This document shows, piece after piece, positions 14,783-24,595 of a DNA stretch of 41,844 nucleotides (within the stretch, counting starts at the first letter, position 1; every line of letters begins with the position of its first letter). The DNA comes from an uncultured Oscillospiraceae bacterium (GTDB lineage Bacteria > Bacillota > Clostridia > Oscillospirales > Ruminococcaceae): contig CASFKY010000007.1 in the NCBI GenBank assembly GCA_949295465.1, positions 1 to 41,844 on the forward strand. Reading direction: 5' to 3'. The notes under the pieces were generated by a model. The model made no database searches. It was given only the letters and a program-made list of their open reading frames with translations, and was not told where the DNA came from. A program made the translations under genes and the position numbers.

Positions 14783-15505
14783 ATGGGAGAAAAATCGATC
14801 CATCACAGCCACCGCCAGCGGATGTATGAGCGGATACGGCGCAACGGGTTTGAGGGATTTTCAGAGCATGAGGTGCTGGAATATCTCTTGTACTTTGCCC
14901 TGCCCCGCATCGACACCAATCCTCTAGCCCATGCGCTCATCGACCATTTCGGCGGCTATACCCAGGTGTTGGAGGCCAGCGAGGAAGAACTGCGGGCCGT
15001 GCCCGGCGTCGGCCCTGCCAGCGCCCGCCTCATCCACTCCATCCTGATGTTCAGCCGGTATTACCAGCTCTGCAAGGTCAGCGACTTCAAGCAGCTGGAC
15101 AGCTGCGAAAAGCTGGTGGAGTACTGTGTGCCTCTGTTCCACGGGATCACCAACGAGCGGGTTTACCTCATCATGATGGATGACCGGCTGAAACTGCTGG
15201 GCACCGTATTGTTGGGGGAGGGGGCCGTCAACACGGTGGACGTGCCGCCCCGCAAGCTGGTGGACCTTGCCCTGCGCTACGGGGCCACCAACGTGGTGCT
15301 GGCCCATAACCACCCGGGAGGCTTCGCTCTGCCTTCCCAGTCGGATATCCGCACCACTCAAAATCTGAAGTTCACCCTCAAAACCATGGGCATCGACCTG
15401 GTGGACCACATCATTGTGGCTCAGGAAGAGGGCACCTCCATGCTCAGCTCTTCCCGCATGCCGGAAATGCCCGGCATCAACCTGGGCTCCACACTTCACG
15501 AATAA
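14783..15505 (+). CDS. radC: RadC family JAMM-domain protein
   Basis: A 240-residue RadC-type protein. A helix-hairpin-helix segment (AVPGVGPASARLI, about 72-84) precedes the JAB/JAMM metallo-domain with metal ligands in AHNHPGG (His175, His177) and Asp188 in SQSD, plus an upstream Glu in LLGEGAVNTVDV. RadC was named a DNA repair protein, but its biochemical role is unsettled. I choose ATG 14783 with AAGGA 7 bases upstream; GTG 14777 is a possible alternative adding two residues. The gene is a single unit ended by a strong hairpin. Confidence 0.92.
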   Translation: MGEKSIHHSHRQRMYERIRRNGFEGFSEHEVLEYLLYFALPRIDTNPLAHALIDHFGGYTQVLEASEEELRAVPGVGPASARLIHSILMFSRYYQLCKVSDFKQLDSCEKLVEYCVPLFHGITNERVYLIMMDDRLKLLGTVLLGEGAVNTVDVPPRKLVDLALRYGATNVVLAHNHPGGFALPSQSDIRTTQNLKFTLKTMGIDLVDHIIVAQEEGTSMLSSSRMPEMPGINLGSTLHE

Positions 15506-15530
15506 TCGCGCTTTTTGTATAAAGCACAGA

Positions 15531-15573
15531 ACGCCCCGCCGCATTCCTGATAACCAAGGATGCGGCGGGGCGT
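15531..15573 (+). terminator. Strong terminator after radC
   Basis: A 17-bp stem with one bulged base: ACGCCCCGCCGCAT... at 15531-15548 pairs with 15557-15573, followed by TTTT. It lies between converging genes and may also block minus-strand transcription from the small gene at 15622-15744. Confidence 0.87.
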
Positions 15574-15621
15574 TTTGCCGGAGTGCTGCGCTCTTTTGGG
15601 CAGGGCCGTCTGCACTGCCCC

Positions 15622-15744
15622 TCAGAGGCGACGAGGCTGCTCCTTTTTCAGGGCCTTTCGGGCCGCCCAGCGGATTTTGCGGCACACAAACACAGTGCCC
15701 GCGCAGCCGGCCAGCGCCAACCCCTCATAAATCCATTCCTGCAT
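15622..15744 (-). CDS. Predicted 40-residue single-span membrane peptide
   Basis: A short reading frame encodes 40 residues starting MQEWIYEGLALAGCAG. A hydrophobic stretch (about 6-21) containing two cysteines (14 and 21) is followed by a strongly basic tail rich in Arg, Lys and Trp, so the predicted topology is outside N-terminus and inside C-terminus. AAAGGA lies 6 bases before the ATG, an ideal spacing, and a good promoter with a perfect palindromic operator lies about 100 bases upstream. These signals are the main reason to call it a gene. I recognise no family. It lacks the CxxC-type motif of FeoB-associated small membrane proteins. It is next to, but not clearly part of, the Van-like operon. 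Confidence 0.6.
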   Translation of the reverse strand: MQEWIYEGLALAGCAGTVFVCRKIRWAARKALKKEQPRRL

Positions 15745-15827
15745 GGTGATCCTTTCTGCCCTTCTGCACTTTGTCTCCCCGGGACGGGGGAACGTGCGGG
15801 GCTCCTGGGGAGAAACTCCCCATTTTC

Positions 15828-15853
15828 CTGTAGTTAGTGTTGACTAACTACAG
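15828..15853. promoter_or_regulatory. Perfect palindromic operator ahead of the small membrane peptide gene
   Basis: CTGTAGTTAGT (15828-15838) and ACTAACTACAG (15843-15853) form a perfect 11-bp inverted repeat with a 4-base centre. It overlaps the predicted transcription start of the minus-strand promoter at 15852-15880, the position of a repressor site. The TTAGT...ACTAA core resembles operators of several dimeric repressors, including DtxR-type metal regulators; the binding protein is not identified. Confidence 0.7.
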
Positions 15854-15880
15854 CATACCGCATGAAGGGCAAAAATGCAA
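15852..15880 (-). promoter_or_regulatory. Promoter for the small membrane peptide gene
   Basis: On the minus strand TTGCAT (15880-15875), a 17-base spacer and TATGCT (15857-15852). The -10 overlaps the edge of the palindrome. The start would fall near 15845, giving a leader of about 100 bases. Confidence 0.65.
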
Positions 15881-15924
15881 GAGGGGGAAAGTGTTTTTGG
15901 CACTTTTCCCCTCCTAGTAATGGC

Positions 15925-17064
15925 TCAGCCCCGAGGCACCACCGGCAGGCGGGGGCCCAGCCGGGCCAACAGCTCATTGGTGAGGGTGCCGCATTGCTCG
16001 GCTATTTCTTCGGCGCGTATCTCTTCGCTGCCCTCCCGGCCCAGGAGGGTAACAATGTCTCCGGCCTGCGCTCCGGGCAGTTCGGTCAGGTCCACCAGCA
16101 ATTGGTCCATACAGATCCGCCCCACCATGGGGCAACGCCGGCCGCCCAGCAGTACTTCGCCCCCCTGGCCGGACAGGCAGCGGGGCAGCCCATCCCCGTA
16201 GCCGATGGTCACCGCCGCGATCCTGCGCCGGCTTTGGGGGCGATAGGCCAGCCCGTACCCGGCCCCTTCACCCTCTTCCAGCCAGCGCACCGAGGCCACC
16301 CGGGCCCGCAGGGAGAGCACCGGCCTCAGGTCCAGTTCCCGCAGGGTCCTGTCCGGCTGGCTGTGTACCCCGTACAGGGCAATTCCGGCCCGCGCCAGGG
16401 TACAGGGCTGGGGCGGCAGATTCCAGATACCATAGCTGGCCTGGATATGGGTCTGGCCGGGCGGGCAACCCCGGGCCCGCATCCAGCCGAGAGTATCGTA
16501 AAATCGGTCCAGCTGGAGGCGGGTGAAGGCTCGGTCTTGGGGGGACAGGCTGTCGCAGGCACAGAGATGGGAAAACACCCCCTGGATATGCAGGCCGGGC
16601 AGGGCGTACAGACGGGCAATGGCCTCCCGGTCCTGCCAGGGGACGCCCAGCCGGTGCATGCCGGTGTCCAGAGCCAGATGGACCTTTATCGGGGTTCCCT
16701 GGTCTGCCAGGGCCTTGCCGTGGTCCTCGTCCGCCACCGCCTGGGTCAGGTCCCACCGGGCCAGTTCTCCGGCCAGCCGGGGCGGGGTGTAGCCCAAAAT
16801 GAGGATCTGCCCCTTTACCCCCTGGCTGCGCAGCTGGATGCCCTCCTCCAGGCAGGCTACCGCGAAATCCCGCACGCCCTCCTGCCAAAGCCGCCGGGCT
16901 ACAGCCGCGACCCCGTGGCCGTAGGCGCCGGCCTTGAGCACTGCCATCAGGCGGCAGCCAGGTGCCAGGGCCCTTTGCAGCACTTTCGCGTTGTGGGTCA
17001 GGGCGCAAAGGTCAATCTCCCGCCAGGCTCTCTGGCAGCGGGGGTCCTCTTCATAGGGATACAT
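15925..17064 (-). CDS. Alanine/serine racemase, soluble, in the VanT position
   Basis: A 379-residue fold-type III PLP racemase. PLP is held by Lys44 in AVLKAGAYGHG and the second catalytic base is Tyr270 in GAGYGLAY; MVGRICMDQ (313-321) is also conserved. The Asp usual after the PLP lysine (KADAYGHG) is Gly46 here. It is the last gene of an operon with vanR, vanS, vanG and vanXY homologues, the place held by the serine racemase vanT in known vanG clusters. VanT proteins have an N-terminal membrane acyltransferase-like domain; this one is purely soluble. It would supply D-Ser, or simply D-Ala, to the ligase. AAAGGAG precedes ATG 17064, and the start overlaps the upstream gene by 14 bases. It could also be an ordinary Alr captured in the operon. 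Confidence 0.9.
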   Translation of the reverse strand: MYPYEEDPRCQRAWREIDLCALTHNAKVLQRALAPGCRLMAVLKAGAYGHGVAAVARRLWQEGVRDFAVACLEEGIQLRSQGVKGQILILGYTPPRLAGELARWDLTQAVADEDHGKALADQGTPIKVHLALDTGMHRLGVPWQDREAIARLYALPGLHIQGVFSHLCACDSLSPQDRAFTRLQLDRFYDTLGWMRARGCPPGQTHIQASYGIWNLPPQPCTLARAGIALYGVHSQPDRTLRELDLRPVLSLRARVASVRWLEEGEGAGYGLAYRPQSRRRIAAVTIGYGDGLPRCLSGQGGEVLLGGRRCPMVGRICMDQLLVDLTELPGAQAGDIVTLLGREGSEEIRAEEIAEQCGTLTNELLARLGPRLPVVPRG

Positions 17065-17530
17065 CGGGCACACTCCTTTCCAAAATACAGGGCGGGGGAG
17101 GCAGAACGGTGCTGTGGGGCGGCACATCCCCGCGCACCACCGCTCCGGCCCCGATCCGGGCCCCTTCTCCCACCTGGATGCCGCCCACCAGGACAGCCCC
17201 GGCCCCGATCAGACAGCCGGGGCCGATGACCGGGGCCCGATGGTCCACCTCGCCAATGGTCACGTTCTGGTAAATGCGGCATCCGGGGCCGATCACCGCA
17301 TAGCGGGAGATGTACACCCCGTGCAGCCCGTGGGGCAGCACCGGGATTCCCTGGATGACTGCCCCGGGCCCCACATAGCCTCCGTGGCGGCAGGCCGAGC
17401 GGTTGGCCAGGTAGGTGATCAGGTCCCGCCAAAGCCGGTTTTTGGCCCGGGCACGCAGACGATACAACCGCCAGAACCACCGCAGATCGTCCCCCTTGGA
17501 GCGGTCGGTCCAGATTTCCCGCATGCTCAT
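17051..17530 (-). CDS. Hexapeptide-repeat acyltransferase, serine acetyltransferase-like
   Basis: About 159 residues. A short helical N-terminus (1-55) leads into a left-handed beta-helix of hexapeptide repeats (about 60-145, e.g. VIGPGCLIGAGAVLVGGIQVGEGARIGAGAVV). The layout resembles serine O-acetyltransferases and small sugar acetyltransferases. Compared with CysE, the second histidine region is kept (VDHRAPVI) but the Asp-His of the catalytic dyad reads Pro-His (LPHGLHG), so serine may not be the acceptor. ATG 17530 overlaps the vanXY stop as ATGA and has GGAGG 7 bases upstream. It lies between vanXY-like and racemase genes, where known vanG clusters have no separate acyltransferase but have an acyltransferase-like domain fused to VanT. 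The role is unknown. Confidence 0.85.
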   Translation of the reverse strand: MSMREIWTDRSKGDDLRWFWRLYRLRARAKNRLWRDLITYLANRSACRHGGYVGPGAVIQGIPVLPHGLHGVYISRYAVIGPGCRIYQNVTIGEVDHRAPVIGPGCLIGAGAVLVGGIQVGEGARIGAGAVVRGDVPPHSTVLPPPPCILERSVPDVSL

Positions 17531-18258
17531 GCCCGGCCCTCCTTCCAGATGGTCCACACCTGCCCGCCCCGGTTATCCCCGGAATGCTGCCGGCAAAATC
17601 CGGCCCCGCTTTTTGGCGGCTGGCAGCCTTCGGGCAGATAAAAAATCTCAAAATCATACCGGCGGGCACGAAAGTACAGGGGCCTTTGGCTGTGGTACCG
17701 GCAAAGCATTTCCAGGTATTCCTCCAGCACCAGGCCCCGGTCGGTGAGGATACGGCTGTGGGGAAAGCCCACATACCGAAAATGCCAGGGCTCGTGGGCA
17801 ATGCCGGTGACCTGCTCCTTGCCGGGGGGATAGCGCAGGATGAACCCATAGTCCGGGGCAAGGCGGCGAAACTCTCCGCAGGCGCCGCTCTCCGGGAAAA
17901 AGGGGCAGATGAAATCCAGCTCCTGCCCGGCCAGGCCCAGGTCAATGGCCAGGCCGGTCTCGTGTTCGCTGCACCCCGGCAGGGCAACAAAGCTGCGGGT
18001 ATAGGCCGGGCCCCGCTTGGCCAGGGTGTCCGCCCAGATCTGTTCCTGCTCCTGCCGGCTGCGCCAGCCGGACACCGGCAGGATCTCATCCTGGCCGCCC
18101 GCGGCCCGGATACAGGCCTGCAACAGCCCCGCTGCCCGGGGTTCCAGCAGAATCTCCGGCCGCCGGGGGTCGGGAGGCAGCAGGCGGGGCGGCTGATCTC
18201 CGGCGAGGGGATGGGTAGCGTTCACCAGGGCCAGAGGCCCCGCACAGCCCCCGCTCAT
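17527..18258 (-). CDS. vanXY: D-Ala-D-Ala dipeptidase/carboxypeptidase, VanXY type
   Basis: A 243-residue zinc peptidase of the VanY family. Zinc ligands and base are visible: His99 and Asp106 in SEHETGLAIDLG, Glu156 and His159 in HEPWHF. PVSGWRSRQEQ (61-71) and the opening LVNATHPL complete the family pattern. There is no signal peptide or membrane anchor, as in VanXY enzymes, which act in the cytoplasm on D-Ala-D-Ala and on pentapeptide ending in D-Ala. The whole length, including the C-terminal TIWKEGR, follows the remembered layout of VanXYG from Enterococcus faecalis. Its ATG overlaps the vanG stop by 4 bases with GGAGGAGGAAGG in front. VanY-like cell wall recycling is the alternative; the operon makes VanXY more likely. 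Confidence 0.9.
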   Translation of the reverse strand: MSGGCAGPLALVNATHPLAGDQPPRLLPPDPRRPEILLEPRAAGLLQACIRAAGGQDEILPVSGWRSRQEQEQIWADTLAKRGPAYTRSFVALPGCSEHETGLAIDLGLAGQELDFICPFFPESGACGEFRRLAPDYGFILRYPPGKEQVTGIAHEPWHFRYVGFPHSRILTDRGLVLEEYLEMLCRYHSQRPLYFRARRYDFEIFYLPEGCQPPKSGAGFCRQHSGDNRGGQVWTIWKEGRA

Positions 18259-19289
18259 CCTTCCTCCTCCGTCTCGATCATCCGGGTGATCAGGGTGGTG
18301 AAATCCAGCCCGATCTGCTTCATCATGGTGGGGTAACGGCTGTGGGCGGTAAACCCGGGGATGGTGTTCACCTCATTGAAAAGGATCCTTCCCTCCGGGG
18401 TGAGGAACAGATCCACCCGGGCAAAACCCTTGCAGTCCAGTGCCCGGTATACAGTGCAGGCGGCCTGCTGCACCTGCCGCGCCGTCTGGGGAGAGATGCG
18501 GGCAGGGCAGTGGATGGAGGAGGTCTTGAGGGTGTATTTTTCCTCAAAATCAAAGAACCCGCCGGCCAGCTGGATCTCGTCCACCGCCCCCACTGTCAGC
18601 TGCCGGGTGCCCAGCACCGCGCAGCCCACCTCAAAGCCGGGCACTGCCTCTTCCAGCAGGATCTCCCGGTCGTTCTCAAAGGCCTTCCGGGCGGCGGCCG
18701 GCAGCTGAGAAGGCTCGCTCACCCGGCTGACCCCGAAGGAGGACCCCGCCCGCACCGGCTTGACAAAGAGGGGATAACCCAGCGCCCGGGCGGCCTCGGC
18801 CAGCTCTTGGGCCGAAGCGCCCCGGCCGAATACCTTTCCCCGGGGCACGTCCACCCCCGCGAGGCTGGCCAGCTTGTGGGCCCTGTCCTTGTCCATACAC
18901 AGGGCGCTGGCCAGCAAGCCGCAGCCGATAAGAGGGATACCCGCCAGTTCCAACAGGCCCTGGAGGGTGCCGTCCTCCCCGTTTTTGCCGTGCAAAAGCG
19001 GCAGTGCCGCGTCAAAATCCAGACAGGTCCAATTCTCGTCCAGCAAGATCAGCCGCCGCGCCCCCCGGGACGGGTCCAGCAGGCAGGGCACCGAACCGGG
19101 CTGCCAGCAGTCGGCGGCGATTTCCTGCGGGCCGCCGGGGTAGTACCGCCAGGCCCCCTGGCGGGTGATGCCCACCAGCACCGGCTGGTACCGGCTTTGG
19201 TCCAGGTGGGCCAGCACTGCGGCGGCCGACTGGAGCGACACCCCGTATTCGGTGGAGCAGCCCCCAAAAAAGATCAGAATCTTTTTCAT
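18255..19289 (-). CDS. vanG: D-alanine--D-serine ligase-like, VanG type
   Basis: A 344-residue ATP-grasp ligase. Key segments are FFGGCSTEYGVSLQSA (N-terminus), HGKNGEDGT (100-108), KPVRAGSSFGV (177-187), the omega-loop EKYTLKTSSIHCPA (250-262) and NEVNTIPGFT (305-314, metal ligands). The EKYTLK omega-loop and the overall wording match VanG-type D-Ala-D-Ser ligases as I remember them, rather than housekeeping Ddl. It would make D-Ala-D-Ser for vancomycin-tolerant peptidoglycan precursors. Start: ATG 19289 with GGGAGG 8 bases upstream; the longer frame begins in the previous gene. A terminator hairpin sits directly before this ribosome binding site. D-Ala-D-Ala activity cannot be excluded from sequence. 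Confidence 0.88.
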   Translation of the reverse strand: MKKILIFFGGCSTEYGVSLQSAAAVLAHLDQSRYQPVLVGITRQGAWRYYPGGPQEIAADCWQPGSVPCLLDPSRGARRLILLDENWTCLDFDAALPLLHGKNGEDGTLQGLLELAGIPLIGCGLLASALCMDKDRAHKLASLAGVDVPRGKVFGRGASAQELAEAARALGYPLFVKPVRAGSSFGVSRVSEPSQLPAAARKAFENDREILLEEAVPGFEVGCAVLGTRQLTVGAVDEIQLAGGFFDFEEKYTLKTSSIHCPARISPQTARQVQQAACTVYRALDCKGFARVDLFLTPEGRILFNEVNTIPGFTAHSRYPTMMKQIGLDFTTLITRMIETEEEG

Positions 19290-19314
19290 CCTCAAAACCT
19301 CCCAAAACAAAAAA

Positions 19315-19351
19315 CGCCTTGTTCTGGTACTGAGCATACCAGAACAAGGCG
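19315..19351 (-). terminator. Intrinsic terminator between vanS and vanG
   Basis: A perfect 15-bp stem: CGCCTTGTTCTGGTA (19315-19329) with 19337-19351, loop of 7. On the minus strand it is followed by TTTTTTGTTTT and then by the vanG ribosome binding site. It should end most vanRS transcripts, separating sensor from resistance genes. The loop and stem also contain TGGTATGCT, an extended -10-like element, so vanG could be transcribed from within the hairpin (inference). Confidence 0.85.
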
Positions 19352-19415
19352 AAATGAATTTGATGGGGGCCTTTCGGGCCGATGAAGATTCTCTCAAAAA
19401 ATCCTTGCGATTTTC

Positions 19416-20528
19416 TTACGGGGCCTGGCCGGCCGGCAATTTCACTGTGAAGATCACCTGCTCCTGCCGGCTGTCGGCGGTGATGGTGCCGCCATGGGCC
19501 TCCACGATCTCCTTGGCAATGGCCAGCCCCAGGCCGGCGTTGCCGGTGCGGGTGCCCCGGGAGGGGTCCAGGCGGAAAAACCGCTCGAACATCCGGGAGA
19601 GCTTTTCCGGCGGGATGGTGGCGCCCGCGTTGGTGAAGGTGAGCACTGCCCACTCCTGTTCAAACCTGCCCTGGATGTGCAGCAGCGAATCCGGGTAGGC
19701 GTAGTGGCAGGCGTTGTTCAGCAGATTGTCAAAAACCCGGGCCAGCTTGTCCGGGTCGCACACCACCCGGAAGGGGTCCGGCACTTCCAGCCGGCAATGC
19801 AACTGCTGGCGGCTGAACACCGGCTCGAACTCACTGCACAGCTGTTCCAGCATCCGTTTCAGGTCCACAGACTGCCGCTCCAGTTCCAGATGGGTCAGGC
19901 TGAACCGGGTGATGTCGAAGAACTCGTTGATCAGATCTTCCAGCCGCTCGGCCTTCTCCAGGGCAATGCCGATGTACCGGGCCCGCATGGCAGGGGAGAG
20001 CTCCGGCTCGTCCCGCAAAAGGGTCAGGTAGCCGATCACGCTGGTGAGAGGCGTTTTCAGGTCGTGGGCCAGATACACCACCAGGTCGTTTTTCCGCTGC
20101 TCCGCCTCCCGGGCGGCCTGGGCAGTGCGCAGGGCCTGTTCCCGCACCAGGTTCAGCTGGGTCTCGGCCTGTTCCAGGGCGGCGGGCAGCCGGATGGGCG
20201 TCTCGGTGGGATGGGCCAGCGCCTCCGCCCCTTCCAGCAGCAGTTCCAGCTGACCCACCGGCCTGGCAATGAAGAAATAGCTGATGACCACCCATCCGAT
20301 CAGCACCGTGAACCCGCCCACCAGGAAGATGTTGTCCTTTACCCACTGAAGCAGCCGGTACAGGGGGGTATCCTGCCAGACAAAGCCGGTGCAGATCATC
20401 AGCCCCAGCAGGGCCAGGGCCGCCACGGCGGTGATCCAGGCCGCCAGGGACAGCAGATACATCCCCAGGCGGCGAAGGGAAGCCTGGCGCAGCCGCTCCC
20501 GGCGCAGGTTGTTCTCCTGTTCACTCAA
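19416..20528 (-). CDS. vanS: Sensor histidine kinase, VanS type
   Basis: A 370-residue kinase with two membrane segments (about 24-47 and 66-86) and only a short external loop between them, then a HAMP-like/coiled linker, a HisKA domain with the phospho-acceptor His155 in YLAHDLKTPLTSVIGYL, and an HATPase domain (NLLNNACHYA N-box; GNAGLGLAIAKEIVE G-box). The H-box sequence and small sensor region agree with VanS proteins of vanB/vanC/vanG-like clusters. It would detect a glycopeptide or a cell wall signal and phosphorylate VanR. The start is TTG 20528, overlapping the vanR stop by 8 bases; no nearby ATG keeps the N-terminus. A terminator follows the gene. Confidence 0.9.
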   Translation of the reverse strand: MSEQENNLRRERLRQASLRRLGMYLLSLAAWITAVAALALLGLMICTGFVWQDTPLYRLLQWVKDNIFLVGGFTVLIGWVVISYFFIARPVGQLELLLEGAEALAHPTETPIRLPAALEQAETQLNLVREQALRTAQAAREAEQRKNDLVVYLAHDLKTPLTSVIGYLTLLRDEPELSPAMRARYIGIALEKAERLEDLINEFFDITRFSLTHLELERQSVDLKRMLEQLCSEFEPVFSRQQLHCRLEVPDPFRVVCDPDKLARVFDNLLNNACHYAYPDSLLHIQGRFEQEWAVLTFTNAGATIPPEKLSRMFERFFRLDPSRGTRTGNAGLGLAIAKEIVEAHGGTITADSRQEQVIFTVKLPAGQAP

Positions 20529-21216
20529 TAGTGTAACCCACCCCCCATACTGTTTTGATGAATTTGGGCCTTCGGCTGTTTTCGTGCATTTTTTCCCGCA
20601 GGCGGGCGATATGGCTCATGACAGTATTGTTGCAGTCCAGGTATTTTTCCCCCCACACCGCCTCAAACAGCTCCTCGCTGGACACCACCTTGCCCTGATG
20701 GCCGCACAGATACCACAGGATGGAGAACTCCAGCGGGGTGAGGGCCAGCTCCTCCCCGAACAAGAGGCACTTGTGGGTGGCCTTGGAGATCTGCAACCCC
20801 CGGATGTCGTACTCCGGCTCCGGCTCAGCCGCGGCCCCCGCCGGGTTGTACCGGGTATAGCGCCGCAGTTGGGTCTTGACCCGGGCCACCAGTTCCAGGG
20901 GATTGAAGGGCTTGGTGATGTAGTCGTCGGCCCCCAGAGTCAGGCCGGTGATCTTGTCCATGTCCTCCACCTTGGCCGTGAGCATCAGGATGGGGAAAAG
21001 GTGCTTTTCCCGGATCTTCTGGCACAGGGCAAAGCCGTCCAGGTCCGGCAGCATTACATCCAGAATGGCCAGGTCCAGGTGCTGGTGCTCGGTGCAGGCC
21101 AGGGCGTCCGCCCCACAGCCGAATTTGTGGACGGTATAGCCCTCGTTTTTCAGGTATACCTCCACCAGGTCGGCAATAGCCGCCTCGTCGTCCACGATCA
21201 TGATATCCGCGCTCAT
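20521..21216 (-). CDS. vanR: Response regulator, VanR type (OmpR/PhoB family)
   Basis: A 231-residue regulator with an N-terminal receiver domain (phospho-acceptor Asp53 in LAILDVMLPDLDG; DD at 9-10; conserved Lys in LGADDYITKPF) and a C-terminal winged-helix DNA-binding domain (LALTPLEFSILWYLCGHQG to VWGVGYTIE). The receiver reads very like VanR (VDDEAAIADLVEVYLKNEGY). It should activate the vanG operon and perhaps itself. ATG 21216 has AAGGAAG upstream. It starts 39 bases after the stop of a small membrane protein gene and overlaps vanS. Confidence 0.92.
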   Translation of the reverse strand: MSADIMIVDDEAAIADLVEVYLKNEGYTVHKFGCGADALACTEHQHLDLAILDVMLPDLDGFALCQKIREKHLFPILMLTAKVEDMDKITGLTLGADDYITKPFNPLELVARVKTQLRRYTRYNPAGAAAEPEPEYDIRGLQISKATHKCLLFGEELALTPLEFSILWYLCGHQGKVVSSEELFEAVWGEKYLDCNNTVMSHIARLREKMHENSRRPKFIKTVWGVGYTIE

Positions 21217-21255
21217 ATACTTCCTTCTTTTTTCTTGGTTTTGGGTCTTGCCCTG

Positions 21256-21750
21256 TCAGGCCATCAGCCCCCGCTCCTCCAACAATTGCCGAAAGGGCTT
21301 GTAGCCCACGCAGATACAGGACACCCGGCAAAATATTCCCTTTTCTGTGCGAAGGATCAGGGTGCCGTACCGGGGGGTCCGGCCCACCCGGACAATCCGG
21401 CCAAGAGGCAGAGAGCGTGCCCTGCCCACATAAGGGATGAGGTGCAGGACCCCCTCCTGCAAAATCAGGCGAAACCGCAGGCTTGTCCAGGCGATACACT
21501 CGATCAGCAGGATGCAGCCCACAAGGCTCCCTGCCAATTGCCGGCCCAGCTCTGGGGTGGACATTTGGGAGCAGAGCGGCGCAAAGGCCCCGAACGCAAG
21601 CCCGATTGTGTGCAGGGCAGCCCGATACACGCCGGGCAGGTACAAAACCAGTGTGTTCTTTTCCGCTTTTGGGTACTGACGGCGGCAGAGCAGTTCCCGG
21701 CAAAGGCCCGCCACCGGCACCAAAAGCGCCAGATAAACAAACTGTTCCAA
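21256..21750 (-). CDS. Small membrane protein with PH-like tail, first gene of the Van-like operon
   Basis: A 164-residue protein I do not assign to a named function. Three hydrophobic stretches (about 4-20, 33-60, 72-95) precede a beta-rich C-terminal part of about 65 residues (GRIVRVGRTPRYGTLILRTE) resembling bacterial PH-like membrane modules. The start is TTG 21750 with AAAGGAGG 8 bases upstream. It has its own extended -10 promoter and is followed 39 bases later by vanR, so it probably leads the operon. Known vanG operons start with the small regulator vanU; this protein is not VanU-like. Confidence 0.7.
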   Translation of the reverse strand: MEQFVYLALLVPVAGLCRELLCRRQYPKAEKNTLVLYLPGVYRAALHTIGLAFGAFAPLCSQMSTPELGRQLAGSLVGCILLIECIAWTSLRFRLILQEGVLHLIPYVGRARSLPLGRIVRVGRTPRYGTLILRTEKGIFCRVSCICVGYKPFRQLLEERGLMA

Positions 21751-21788
21751 CGCTGGCTCCTCCTTTCGGCCTCATCCTTTTGAATTCT

Positions 21789-21818
21789 ACTATACCACAG
21801 GCCGCGGCGGGTTGTCAT
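21789..21818 (-). promoter_or_regulatory. Promoter of the Van-like operon
   Basis: On the minus strand ATGACA (21818-21813), an 18-base spacer and TATAGT (21794-21789), with TGG just before the -10 (extended -10). It lies about 40 bases upstream of the TTG start of the first gene. Confidence 0.65.
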
Positions 21819-21911
21819 CTGTCCCGGCTCCGGGCAGAAATTTGGAAAAGAAAATCTCGGCTTTTTGGGCTCTGGCTATTGAATTGAGCGGCCGGTTGTG
21901 ATATGTTCACC

Positions 21912-21955
21912 CTGGTGAGGATGCCGCCGGGCTAGGACCCGGCAGCCCTCTCCAG
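21912..21955 (+). ncRNA. Long hairpin in the vanR-side/fructokinase intergenic region, unassigned
   Basis: CTGGTGAGG at 21912-21920 pairs, with small internal loops, through GCCGGG...CCCGGC to CCTCTCCAG at 21947-21955, giving a stem of about 16-18 pairs with a 6-base loop. It is followed by an A6T5 palindrome. It lies about 75 bases upstream of the fructokinase gene and could be a leader element or a small RNA. No riboswitch core I know fits. Whether it is transcribed is unknown. Confidence 0.35.
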
Positions 21956-22029
21956 AAAAAATTTTTCAAAGGCACCCCGCCCGGCGAGGCGCTTTTGTGT
22001 CTGCTTTTTCAAAACGGAAGGTGAATGTG

Positions 22030-23004
22030 ATGCCAGAAATCGTAACCATCGGAGAAGCCCTCATCGACCTGACCCAGACCGGGGAAAAGCCCGGCCATAT
22101 CCGGCAGTATGCCGCATTTCCCGGGGGCGCGCCCGCCAATGTGGCGGTGGCTGCCGCCCGCCTGGGTGCCAGCACCGCCTTCATCGGCAAGGTGGGCAGG
22201 GACGCCTTTGGCAGTTCCATCCGCCAGGTGCTGAAGGACAACCAAGTGGATGTGAGCGGCCTTCGGCAGAGCGACGAGGCCCTCACCACCCTGGCGGTGG
22301 TGAGCATCGAGGCCGGGGGCGAGCGGGTGTTTTCCTTTTACCGGGCGCCCGGCGCGGACACCTGCCTCACCCCAGAGGAGGCACTGGAGGCGCTGGAACA
22401 CTACCCCCAAAAGCCCCGGTTCCTCCATTTCGGCTCGGTCAGTCTGACCGCTGACCCGGCCCGCAGCGCCACCCTGTGCGCCGCCCGCAAAGCCCGGGAG
22501 GAAGGGCTCCTCATCAGCTATGACCCCAACTACCGGGCCAGCCTCTGGCCGGACCAGGCCACCGCCGTGGAGCGGATGCGGGAGCCGCTGCCCCTGTGCC
22601 ATCTGCTCAAGCTGGCCCAGGAGGAGCTGGAACTGCTGTCCGGCCAGGCCGACCCGGAAGCCGGCAGCCTGGCCCTGGCCGAGGCCTATTCCATTCCCCT
22701 CATTGTGGTCACATTGGGGGGCGAGGGCAGCTTTTATCGGTTTGGCGGCCATTGCGGGCATATTGCTGCCCAAAAGGTAGAAGTGGCAGATACCAACGGG
22801 GCAGGGGATACCTTCCTGGGGGCGCTGCTCTCCCGCCTGGTCCTGTCCGGCGGGCTGGAAGGGCTCACCCCCAAAGAGCTGGAATCTCACCTGAATTTTG
22901 CCAGCCGGGCCGCCGCCCTCACCTGTACCCGGCCGGGGGCCATCCCGGCCATGCCCATGCTGGGGGAGGTGGAGGCGCAGGTTCCCCAGGGAGAACAGTC
23001 ATGA
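22030..23004 (+). CDS. Fructokinase-like PfkB sugar kinase
   Basis: About 324 residues. PfkB signature 1 is visible as FPGGAPANVAVAAARLG (about 32-48) and signature 2 as DTNGAGDTFLGALL (about 254-267). GGAPANVA is typical of fructokinase and KDG kinase rather than ribokinase. It would phosphorylate fructose or a related sugar at the cost of ATP. I choose ATG 22030 with GGAAGGTG upstream; an upstream in-frame ATG at 21997 lacks this. The stop codon overlaps the start of a response regulator gene as ATGA. No sucrose hydrolase or transporter is adjacent. Confidence 0.88.
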   Translation: MPEIVTIGEALIDLTQTGEKPGHIRQYAAFPGGAPANVAVAAARLGASTAFIGKVGRDAFGSSIRQVLKDNQVDVSGLRQSDEALTTLAVVSIEAGGERVFSFYRAPGADTCLTPEEALEALEHYPQKPRFLHFGSVSLTADPARSATLCAARKAREEGLLISYDPNYRASLWPDQATAVERMREPLPLCHLLKLAQEELELLSGQADPEAGSLALAEAYSIPLIVVTLGGEGSFYRFGGHCGHIAAQKVEVADTNGAGDTFLGALLSRLVLSGGLEGLTPKELESHLNFASRAAALTCTRPGAIPAMPMLGEVEAQVPQGEQS

Positions 23005-23684
23005 ACCGCCTTTTTCTGTTGGAGGACGATGAGGCCCTTGGCCGGGGGATCGCCATGGCCTTGGAAGGCCCGGACTGTGCCGTGCGCCGGGCTCTGGATC
23101 TTGCCGGGGCCCGTCAGGCCCTGCAAGCAGAGCGGTTTGATCTGCTGATCCTGGATCTGAACCTCCCCGACGGCAGCGGGCTGGACCTTCTGCGCCAGCT
23201 GCGGGCCAAAGGCGAGGAGGTCCCGGTCATCCTGCTCACCGCCAATGACCTGGAACTGGACGAGGTCACCGGCCTGGAGGCGGGGGCCGACGACTACATC
23301 ACCAAGCCCTTCTCCCTGGCAGTGCTGCGTGCCCGGGTGGGCGCCCGGCTGCGGCGGGGCGCAGGGGATGCCTCGGGGGCGCTGGCCCTGGGGCCCTTTC
23401 TCTTTGATTTTGAGCGGATGGAATTCTCCCGGGAGGGCAGGCCGGTGGAACTGAGCAAGACCGAGCAAAAGCTGCTTCGCCTGTTGGTGGAAAACCGCGG
23501 CCATGCGGTGCGCCGCTCGGCCCTGGTGGACCGGGTATGGGGCGACGGGGCCGATTTTGTGGAGGAGAACGCCCTCTCGGTCACAGTCAAACGGCTGCGC
23601 AGCAAGCTGGAAAAGGACCCTGCCCGGCCGGAATATCTCAGAACGGTGTACGGCATCGGCTACACCTGGGCGGTGACACCATGA
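23001..23684 (+). CDS. OmpR/PhoB family response regulator
   Basis: A 227-residue regulator: receiver domain with phospho-acceptor Asp52 in LLILDLNLPDGSG and conserved Lys in GADDYITKPF, then a winged-helix output domain (VELSKTEQKLLRLLVENRG to LRTVYGIGYTW). ATG 23001 overlaps the fructokinase stop by 4 bases and has GGGAGA upstream. It overlaps the kinase gene in the same way. With the ABC transporter about 2 kb downstream it resembles BceRS/VraSR-type arrangements that sense peptide antibiotics, although a PadR unit lies between. Confidence 0.92.
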   Translation: MNRLFLLEDDEALGRGIAMALEGPDCAVRRALDLAGARQALQAERFDLLILDLNLPDGSGLDLLRQLRAKGEEVPVILLTANDLELDEVTGLEAGADDYITKPFSLAVLRARVGARLRRGAGDASGALALGPFLFDFERMEFSREGRPVELSKTEQKLLRLLVENRGHAVRRSALVDRVWGDGADFVEENALSVTVKRLRSKLEKDPARPEYLRTVYGIGYTWAVTP

Positions 23685-24595
23685 CCGGGTATCTGATGTT
23701 GGGGGCGCTGGCCGCAGCTATGGGGCTGGCGGCAGTGTGGGAGCGTCGGCGGTCCGCCAAGACCCTGCGCCGGCTGGAAGAGATGGTGGAGATGGCCCTG
23801 GCCGGCGATTTTTCGGAGGAGAGCTTTGAAGAGAGCCGGCTTTCTGCCCTGGAAAGCCGGCTGGCCCGGTATCTCTCCTCCAGCGCCCTTTGCGCCCGGA
23901 ATCTCCAGGCCCAGAAAGACCAGATCAGTTCCCTGATCTCGGACATTTCCCACCAGACCCGCACCCCGGTGGCCAACCTGCGGCTTTATGCCCAGCTGCT
24001 GGAGGAACAGCCCCTCACCCCTCAGGGCCGGGACTGTGCCCGGGCCATTTCCGCCCAGTCGGAAAAACTCCAGACCCTCATTGAGGCCCTGGTTAAGACC
24101 TCCCGGCTGGAAAGCGGGCTTCTGGCCCTTCATCCCAGGCAAGAGGAACTTGCTCCCCTGGCAAAGCGGGCGCTGGAACAATACCTGCCTCTGGCCCAAA
24201 AGAAGGGGCTCTCCCTCACGGCCGGGCCGCTTCAGGGCTCGGCGGTGCTGGACGCCAAGTGGGCAGAGGAGGCCCTCTGCAATCTGGTGGACAACGCCCT
24301 GAAATACACCCCTGCCGGCGGTTCGGTGCGCTTGCAGGTGCAGAATTACGAGCTGTTTGCCGCCATCCAGATCATCGATACCGGCCCCGGCATCCCGGAG
24401 GACCAGCAGGCCCGGATTTTTGGCCGGTTCTGGCGGGCGCCCGGCGCCTGGCAGACCGAAGGGGTGGGCATCGGCCTTTACCTGACCCGCCAGATCGCTG
24501 AAAAGCAGGGCGGCTATGTGAAGGTGGACAGCCGGCCCGGGCAGGGCAGCACCTTTTCGCTCTATCTGCCCCGGGAATTGCCGCAGGGCGGTTGA
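23681..24595 (+). CDS. Sensor histidine kinase with a single N-terminal membrane segment
   Basis: A 304-residue kinase. One membrane helix (about 3-20) leads directly to a cytoplasmic coiled linker, a HisKA domain with His91 in DISHQTRTPVANLRLYAQLL, and an HATPase domain (NLVDNALKYTPAGG; DTGPGIPE; GVGIGLYLTRQIAE). It has no extracellular sensor domain, so it either senses within the membrane or depends on a partner protein, as intramembrane-sensing kinases paired with ABC transporters do. ATG 23681 overlaps the regulator stop. A bidirectional terminator follows. Confidence 0.92.
   Translation: MTGYLMLGALAAAMGLAAVWERRRSAKTLRRLEEMVEMALAGDFSEESFEESRLSALESRLARYLSSSALCARNLQAQKDQISSLISDISHQTRTPVANLRLYAQLLEEQPLTPQGRDCARAISAQSEKLQTLIEALVKTSRLESGLLALHPRQEELAPLAKRALEQYLPLAQKKGLSLTAGPLQGSAVLDAKWAEEALCNLVDNALKYTPAGGSVRLQVQNYELFAAIQIIDTGPGIPEDQQARIFGRFWRAPGAWQTEGVGIGLYLTRQIAEKQGGYVKVDSRPGQGSTFSLYLPRELPQGG

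What the first reader, a model, noticed from the sequence alone, without database searches (positions are those of the whole stretch)
15925..21750. Complete VanG-type glycopeptide-resistance-like operon
In order on the minus strand lie homologues of VanR, VanS, VanG (omega-loop EKYTLK), VanXY (SEHETGLAIDLG, HEPWHF) and a racemase in the VanT position, nearly all with overlapping starts and stops. This is the gene set for making D-Ala-D-Ser precursors and removing D-Ala-D-Ala. The sequence shows the families and the order; resistance itself is inference, since silent and low-level vanG clusters are known in Clostridia. No transposase or integrase flanks it, and its GC use matches the neighbouring housekeeping genes, suggesting a resident cluster.
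Basis: partly seen in the sequence, partly recalled or inferred. Interest (0 to 1): 0.85.

Follow-up and report, generated by a model that had tools for sequence, protein, structure and literature searches.

The report
VanG cluster with swapped acetyltransferase
This bacterium carries a resident vancomycin-resistance-type gene set in which the membrane half of a key enzyme is missing and a small soluble acetyltransferase sits in its place, a swap repeated in relatives that hints at an overlooked acetylation step in this kind of cell-wall change.

Summary
The genes are real: vanR, vanS, a VanG-class ligase, vanXY and a VanT-type racemase lie on the minus strand, and the genome has a separate Ddl. 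The racemase lacks VanT's membrane acyltransferase-3 (AT3) domain, so this is not a classic complete VanG operon. In 61 ligase-anchored loci of other Clostridia, 43 have AT3, 9 this acetyltransferase, 9 neither, none both. Genome-wide, 0 of 43 AT3 genomes carry it and 0 of 10 genomes with it carry VanT-type AT3. A concatenated tree needs 9 switches, 7 forced by well-supported branches; stricter tests have few independent pairs. Six genomes with the gene not seen beside van genes all have a VanG-type ligase, but four of them also hold AT3. The protein keeps the hexapeptide histidine but lacks CysE's motifs. Best reading: a VanG variant in which a soluble acetyltransferase replaces VanT's AT3 domain, implying an acyl-transfer step. 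Acceptor unknown; resistance untested.

The parts
20521..21216 (-). vanR, response regulator
   Evidence: NCBIfam vanR_ACDEGLN 389.8 bits, cut-off 350
19416..20528 (-). vanS, sensor kinase; its start overlaps the end of vanR
   Evidence: NCBIfam HK_VanS 366 bits, under the 400 cut-off; HisKA and HATPase_c
19315..19351 (-). terminator-like hairpin (15 perfectly paired bases, then a T-run) ending 25 nt before the vanG start; left arm carries a TG.TA...T motif, like an extended -10 box, shared by the 16 rows aligned
   Evidence: (pair I19)
18255..19289 (-). VanG-class D-Ala-D-Ser ligase
   Evidence: NCBIfam VanG 500.2 bits, cut-off 495; best solved relative VanG 4fu0, with the same EKYTLK stretch
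17527..18258 (-). vanXY, D,D-dipeptidase/D,D-carboxypeptidase
   Evidence: best solved relative 4f78, 3.8e-63; NCBIfam vanXY is the best hit but under its cut-off
   Evidence: PF00132; AlphaFold pLDDT 92.6; nearest folds are serine acetyltransferases; ATGA overlap with vanXY and a ribosome site; conserved van neighbour in relatives
15925..17064 (-). stand-alone VanT-type serine racemase, no membrane domain
   Evidence: NCBIfam vanT-G-Cterm 504.4 bits, cut-off 460; Asn where 23 of 24 non-van racemases have Tyr; start with ribosome site

Best explanation
A resident, VanRS-controlled VanG-type D-Ala-D-Ser cluster in a variant layout. Shown by sequence: VanG-class ligase, VanXY, serine-type racemase, VanRS, and a soluble hexapeptide acetyltransferase in the slot where most VanG clusters sampled have VanT's AT3 membrane acyltransferase domain. 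Inferred from established families: VanS and VanR sense glycopeptide or wall stress and turn the operon on; the racemase makes D-Ser; VanG joins D-Ala to D-Ser; VanXY removes D-Ala-D-Ala; vancomycin then binds the wall precursor less well. Inferred here: the acetyltransferase does the job that AT3 does in classic VanT, so acyl transfer from acetyl-CoA, and not only serine uptake, is part of the VanG system. The acceptor is not known; the likeliest is a wall precursor or the D-Ser-containing unit, not free L-Ser in the CysE manner.
For: Families and solved relatives. Separate Ddl. Racemase Asn against Tyr in housekeeping Alr. Of 61 ligase-anchored loci 43 have AT3, 9 the acetyltransferase, 9 neither, 0 both; of 64 acetyltransferase-anchored loci 52 have the ligase in reach and none of these has AT3. 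Acetyltransferase in 0 of 43 AT3 genomes; VanT-type AT3 in 0 of 10 acetyltransferase genomes, and in G060 and G080, two of the four 'neither' genomes that have a racemase, a stand-alone AT3 elsewhere. Switching: 12 changes on the ligase tree, 3 forced by starred branches; 9 and 7 on the concatenated tree; 8 and 5 on the racemase tree, so the partner changed while the racemase stayed. Six genomes whose acetyltransferase was not seen beside van genes all carry a VanG-type ligase, against 35 of 394 order and 28 of 391 class genomes. VanT AT3 domains keep R-X10-H in 41 of 43, shuffles 222 of 2150 ([quoted passage not shown] The PHG histidine of the acetyltransferase is invariant in 55 of 55 van-linked members.
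Against: Four of those six genomes (G799, G800, G801, G802) also have an AT3 beside a ligase, so exclusion is not absolute. G146 and G186 have ligase and racemase but neither acyltransferase was found; G186's racemase lacks the Asn. Independent starred pairs are only 3 on the 107-locus ligase tree (sign test p 0.25) and 3 on the ligase-anchored tree (p 0.5), where only 4 changes are needed. All trees are quick ones. AT3 acts across the membrane while this enzyme should be cytoplasmic, so 'same job' is an inference. VanXY and VanS fall under their curated cut-offs. No substrate, expression or resistance data. The genome is 84% complete.
Confidence: 0.68

Rival explanations
1. The extra gene is an ordinary CysE serine acetyltransferase for cysteine synthesis, or for trimming the L-Ser pool, that rides in the operon.
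For: Best sequence and fold matches are serine acetyltransferases. Elsewhere in the held genome only two weak hexapeptide matches were found.
Against: 72.7 bits against a CysE cut-off of 210.65. The EIHP, IDHG and GKRHP motifs of the relatives' CysE-like proteins are absent; only the histidine stays. Operon place is conserved and swapped with AT3.
Confidence: 0.12
2. A classic VanG cluster whose AT3 part supplied serine; the acetyltransferase is a functionally separate add-on and the exclusion reflects shared ancestry and small numbers.
For: AT3 of VanT has been proposed to be an L-serine transporter (PMC9558356 passage). Few independent starred pairs (3, p 0.25; 3, p 0.5 in the ligase-anchored set). 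Four genomes hold both genes.
Against: Seven switches forced by starred branches on the concatenated tree and five on the racemase tree. Exclusion holds genome-wide in the ligase-anchored sample.
Confidence: 0.15
3. A decaying, silent cluster with no present function in this lineage.
For: The same-genus genome G001 has only vanR whole and remnants of vanS, vanG and the racemase at the same site; the racemase of G025 is also in pieces. A cryptic vanG operon is named in the title of a cited C. difficile paper.
Against: All six genes are open in the window, with overlaps, ribosome sites and the racemase Asn kept.
Confidence: 0.05

Closest known systems
VanG-type D-Ala-D-Ser cluster of Enterococcus faecalis BM4518 (vanU,R,S and vanY,W,G,XY,T)
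   Same: VanR, VanS, VanG, VanXY and serine racemase homologues in the same order (gene list in PMC4405338 passages)
   Different: Here there is no vanY or vanW between vanS and vanG (126 nt gap), no VanT membrane domain, and an added acetyltransferase gene
vanG cluster of Clostridioides difficile (vanR, S, G, XY, T)
   Same: Same five-gene core (genes named in PMC11326576 passages)
   Different: VanT there is AT3 fused to a racemase (PMC12423673 passage; that the accession named is C. difficile's is recalled); the window has a soluble acetyltransferase and a separate racemase
CysE/EpsC serine O-acetyltransferases
   Same: Hexapeptide fold, nearest solved structures, kept histidine
   Different: 159 aa, under the family cut-offs, without the motifs shared by CysE-like relatives
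Split VanT of VanL-type Enterococcus (separate membrane and racemase genes; recalled)
   Same: Racemase encoded apart from the membrane part
   Different: There the membrane part is still present (recalled); here none was found in the held genome

Membership tests
VanG-type D-Ala-D-Ser resistance cluster | VanG-class D-Ala-D-Ser ligase distinct from the housekeeping Ddl | tested here: met
   500.2 bits, VanG cut-off 495; second ligase 369.8 bits to VanG and 408.7 to a Ddl model
VanG-type D-Ala-D-Ser resistance cluster | VanXY dipeptidase/carboxypeptidase | tested here: inconclusive
   Best hits are VanXY and VanXY-G but scores lie under the NCBIfam cut-offs (215.9 of 250; 203.7 of 500)
VanG-type D-Ala-D-Ser resistance cluster | Serine racemase catalytic domain | tested here: met
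   504.4 bits, cut-off 460; Asn at the column where 23 of 24 non-van racemases have Tyr (that this Asn marks serine use is recalled)
VanG-type D-Ala-D-Ser resistance cluster | VanT membrane (AT3) domain | tested here: not met
   Racemase is 379 aa without a membrane part; no VanT-type AT3 at E 1e-6 in the held genome, which is 84% complete
VanG-type D-Ala-D-Ser resistance cluster | VanR/VanS two-component control | tested here: inconclusive
   VanR over its cut-off; VanS is the best hit but 366 of 400 bits
VanG-type D-Ala-D-Ser resistance cluster | Precursors ending in D-Ala-D-Ser and raised glycopeptide MIC | not testable with these tools
   Needs a cultured strain
CysE serine O-acetyltransferase | Hexapeptide beta-helix fold | tested here: met
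CysE serine O-acetyltransferase | Family score and the motifs EIHP, IDHG, GKRHP | tested here: not met
   72.7 bits of 210.65; motifs absent, histidine kept
Acyltransferase-3 (PF01757) | AT3 domain | tested here: not met
   The window protein matches only hexapeptide families; the AT3 comparison domain of L068 does match PF01757

The most novel reading that the evidence does not exclude
VanG-type D-Ala-D-Ser systems include a so far unrecognised acetylation step on the D-Ser-bearing wall precursor (for example O-acetylated D-Ser termini or an acetylated muramyl unit). Most lineages do it with the AT3 half of VanT; many gut Oscillospirales and some Lachnospiraceae do it with a soluble hexapeptide enzyme that has traded places with AT3 several times.
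Probability: 0.25. Interest if true: 0.9.

Novelty: new variant of a known kind. Interest (0 to 1): 0.66.

Why it matters
[quoted passage not shown] A small soluble enzyme that repeatedly takes the place of that domain is far easier to purify and assay than a membrane protein, so the acceptor could be found directly. It would also change how vanG clusters of gut commensals are annotated, since the acetyltransferase is easily taken for a cysteine-synthesis gene.

Tried and rejected
Rejected: ligase as housekeeping Ddl. Rejected: acetyltransferase as true CysE. Rejected: recent mobile import; the same-genus genome has the same flanks, the acetyltransferase gave one weak Rhizobium hit among plasmids and no relative in a pattern-limited scan of viral contigs. 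The racemase is the only PF00842 match in the held genome, which at first suggested it is the sole alanine racemase; but all 25 other genomes have two or more matches (in G001 one is the cluster remnant and the other is Tyr-type), so a gap in the 84% complete assembly is likelier. No Rfam family matched 15000-22500. Hairpin caution: within 260 nt of the start a hairpin was found in 26 of 61 acetyltransferase, 20 of 43 AT3 and 3 of 9 'neither' loci with enough sequence, and in 37 of 565 letter shuffles; the 16 rows were picked from 24 distinct loci that were chosen for having one, so the pair counts are raised by choice. The sign test printed is void, because one label was defined as the opposite of the other and 'neither' loci were dropped; only its change counts are used. 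Literature: one search gave 1 paper (unrelated, passages seen), none, one search listed 20 of 780, one search listed 10 of 39, one search listed 8 of 239; none of the listed titles or passages seen links an acetyltransferase gene to vanG, but most hits were not opened. Two papers sought by id are not held.
Full report
WHAT IS THERE. The window is one whole contig of a 2.15 Mb, 84% complete genome assembly. On its minus strand lie vanR, vanS, a VanG-class ligase, vanXY, a hexapeptide acetyltransferase and a VanT-type racemase. The ligase, the racemase and VanR pass the NCBIfam cut-offs for VanG, the VanT-G catalytic part and VanR; VanS (366 of 400) and VanXY (215.9 of 250) fall short although those families are their best hits. 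Best solved relatives are VanG 4fu0, serine racemase 4ecl and VanXY 4f78.

THE MISSED GENE. Between vanXY and the racemase is a 159-aa gene at 17051-17530. Its ATG overlaps the vanXY stop as ATGA behind an AAGGAGG, and the racemase start at 17064, with its own ribosome site, overlaps its end. It is a hexapeptide-repeat protein, modelled at pLDDT 92.6 from 44 rows; the 50 Foldseek matches listed are all serine acetyltransferases. Yet it is far under the CysE cut-off (72.7 of 210.65). Of 27 hexapeptide relatives from neighbouring genomes (L040-L066) 24 carry the motifs EIHP, IDHG and GKRHP; the window protein and the other 11 rows of its kind in that alignment (8 van-linked or unlinked members, 3 distant) lack all three and keep the histidine in PHGLHG (that these motifs form CysE's serine site and catalytic dyad is recalled). 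That histidine is invariant in 55 of 55 van-linked members. The three distant relatives (L134-L136, 39-40% identical) share PHGLHGVFIS; L136 lies among genes that I read as polysaccharide synthesis (not scanned for families).

WHAT IT REPLACES. Classic VanT is a membrane AT3 domain (PF01757, confirmed on L068) joined to the racemase. I sampled VanG-type ligases in 61 genomes (own and relatives), 394 genomes of the order and 391 of the class, and took the regions of 61 loci from other genomes (the decayed G001 locus was left out). 43 have AT3 (35 of them with a racemase in reach), 9 have the acetyltransferase (all with a racemase), 9 have neither (4 with a racemase, 5 lone ligases), none has both. 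A separate scan of named genomes for the acetyltransferase gave 64 loci: 52 have the ligase in reach and none of these has AT3; 3 are cut by a contig end beside a racemase or ligase tail (L080, L084, L106); 6 show no van gene in reach (L082, L101, L104, L116, L117, L132, of which L116 and L132 lie at contig ends, so one side is unseen); 3 are distant relatives. Of the 62 acetyltransferase loci with a ligase over both samples and the window, duplicates included, 36 lie between vanXY and racemase, 19 between ligase and racemase, 5 between vanS and ligase, 2 at a contig end. Carriers are named as Flavonifractor, Pseudoflavonifractor, Gemmiger, Oscillibacter, Lachnospiraceae and other Clostridia.

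GENOME-WIDE. In 63 genomes (those 61, the window's and G001) the acetyltransferase was found at E 1e-20 in the 10 with that layout and in none of the 43 AT3 genomes. A VanT-type AT3 was found at E 1e-6 in 0 of the 10, and as a stand-alone gene in G060 and G080, two of the four 'neither' genomes that have a racemase; G146 and G186 showed neither. The six genomes with no van gene beside the acetyltransferase all have a VanG-type ligase elsewhere, E 4.5e-113 or better, against 35 of 394 and 28 of 391 genomes at E 1e-92 in order and class. Their van regions: three without AT3 (L228, L229, L234) and four with it (L230-L233; L231 and L232 show no racemase beside it), G802 having one of each. So four of six genomes hold both genes, unlinked; this counts against a strict exclusion.

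REPEATED SWITCHING. On a ligase tree of 107 loci plus an outgroup the two layouts need 12 changes, 3 forced by starred branches. On a tree of ligase, racemase, VanR and VanS (80 loci, 'neither' dropped, VanR and VanS missing in some) they need 9, 7 forced. On the racemase alone they need 8, 5 forced: the partner changed while the racemase stayed, for example L119, L121 and L122 inside AT3 racemases. Both layouts occur in one genus, g86. Against this, independent starred pairs number only 3 on the 107-locus ligase tree (p 0.25), and on the ligase-anchored tree of 62 loci 3 (p 0.5), where 4 changes suffice. The statistics are suggestive, not decisive.

FUNCTION. The racemase column that is Tyr in 23 of 24 non-van racemases of relatives (His in the other) is Asn in the window and in nearly all van racemases that cover it; that this Asn marks serine use in VanT is recalled. 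The AT3 domains keep R-X10-H in 41 of 43, against 222 of 2150 shuffles, a motif called absolutely conserved and its residues essential in AT3 proteins (PMC9833829 passages). The role of AT3 in VanT is called unknown, with a proposal that it is a serine transporter (PMC9558356 passage), and mutations linked to high-level resistance are said to fall in it (PMC12423673 passage); the study cited reports vanT mutations in evolved lines but could not recreate the resistance by introducing them (PMC11326576 passages). Two unrelated acyltransferases trading one operon slot point to an acyl-transfer step in the VanG system. That step and its acceptor are inferred; nothing here shows acetylation. AT3 moves acyl groups across the membrane, while the hexapeptide enzyme should act inside the cell.

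CONTROL REGION. Between vanS and vanG a hairpin with 15 perfectly paired bases and a T-run ends 25 nt before the vanG start. A hairpin 5-60 nt before the start with a stem of 12 or more occurs in 30 loci, 24 distinct, of both layouts; any such hairpin within 260 nt in 26 of 61 acetyltransferase and 20 of 43 AT3 loci, against 37 of 565 shuffles. On 16 of the 24, 10 of 15 pairs change on both sides and 97.5% of cells pair, but the rows were chosen for having a hairpin. The left arm carries an invariant TG.TA...T, like an extended -10 box; a terminator of the vanRS message with the operon's own promoter built into it is my inference.

RESIDENCE AND DECAY. The same-genus genome G001 has the same flanks at about 80-82% identity and only vanR whole; window stretches of about 2.6 kb and 0.9 kb are missing there. 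The cluster is thus settled at this site and dispensable.

VERDICT. A real, resident VanG-type cluster in a variant layout. The novelty is the acetyltransferase in place of VanT's AT3 domain, for which I saw no report in the listings. Papers were seen only as passages found by search terms, none whole.

Noticed in passing
window 19315-19351: Terminator-like hairpin directly before vanG, recurring near the same place in many VanG clusters with paired changes, with an extended -10-like motif inside its left arm.
   Followed up: partly
L072 (G001:C11:393000-408000): Same-genus genome with the cluster decayed at the same site: vanR and the upstream gene whole, vanS, vanG and racemase as remnants.
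   Followed up: yes
window 21256-21750: 164-aa gene without a family match just upstream of vanR; among the loci examined found only in the same-genus genome (85% identical).
   Followed up: partly
window 23010-24595 (+ strand): A second response regulator and kinase pair next to a pfkB sugar kinase, on the strand opposite to the van cluster.
   Followed up: no
L082, L101, L104, L116, L117, L132: Acetyltransferase genes with no van gene in reach; all six genomes have a VanG-type ligase elsewhere.
   Followed up: yes
L102, L107, L113, L114, L120, L123: Clusters with the acetyltransferase that have about 1 kb of other sequence between vanS and vanG and no vanXY found beside the ligase.
   Followed up: no
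G802: L233 and L234: One genome with two VanG-type clusters, one with AT3 and one without, plus an acetyltransferase gene on another contig.
   Followed up: partly
plasmid OY725857.1 (hit H2): A 335 kb plasmid record of Subdoligranulum variabile carries a VanG-class ligase 57% identical to the window's.
   Followed up: no
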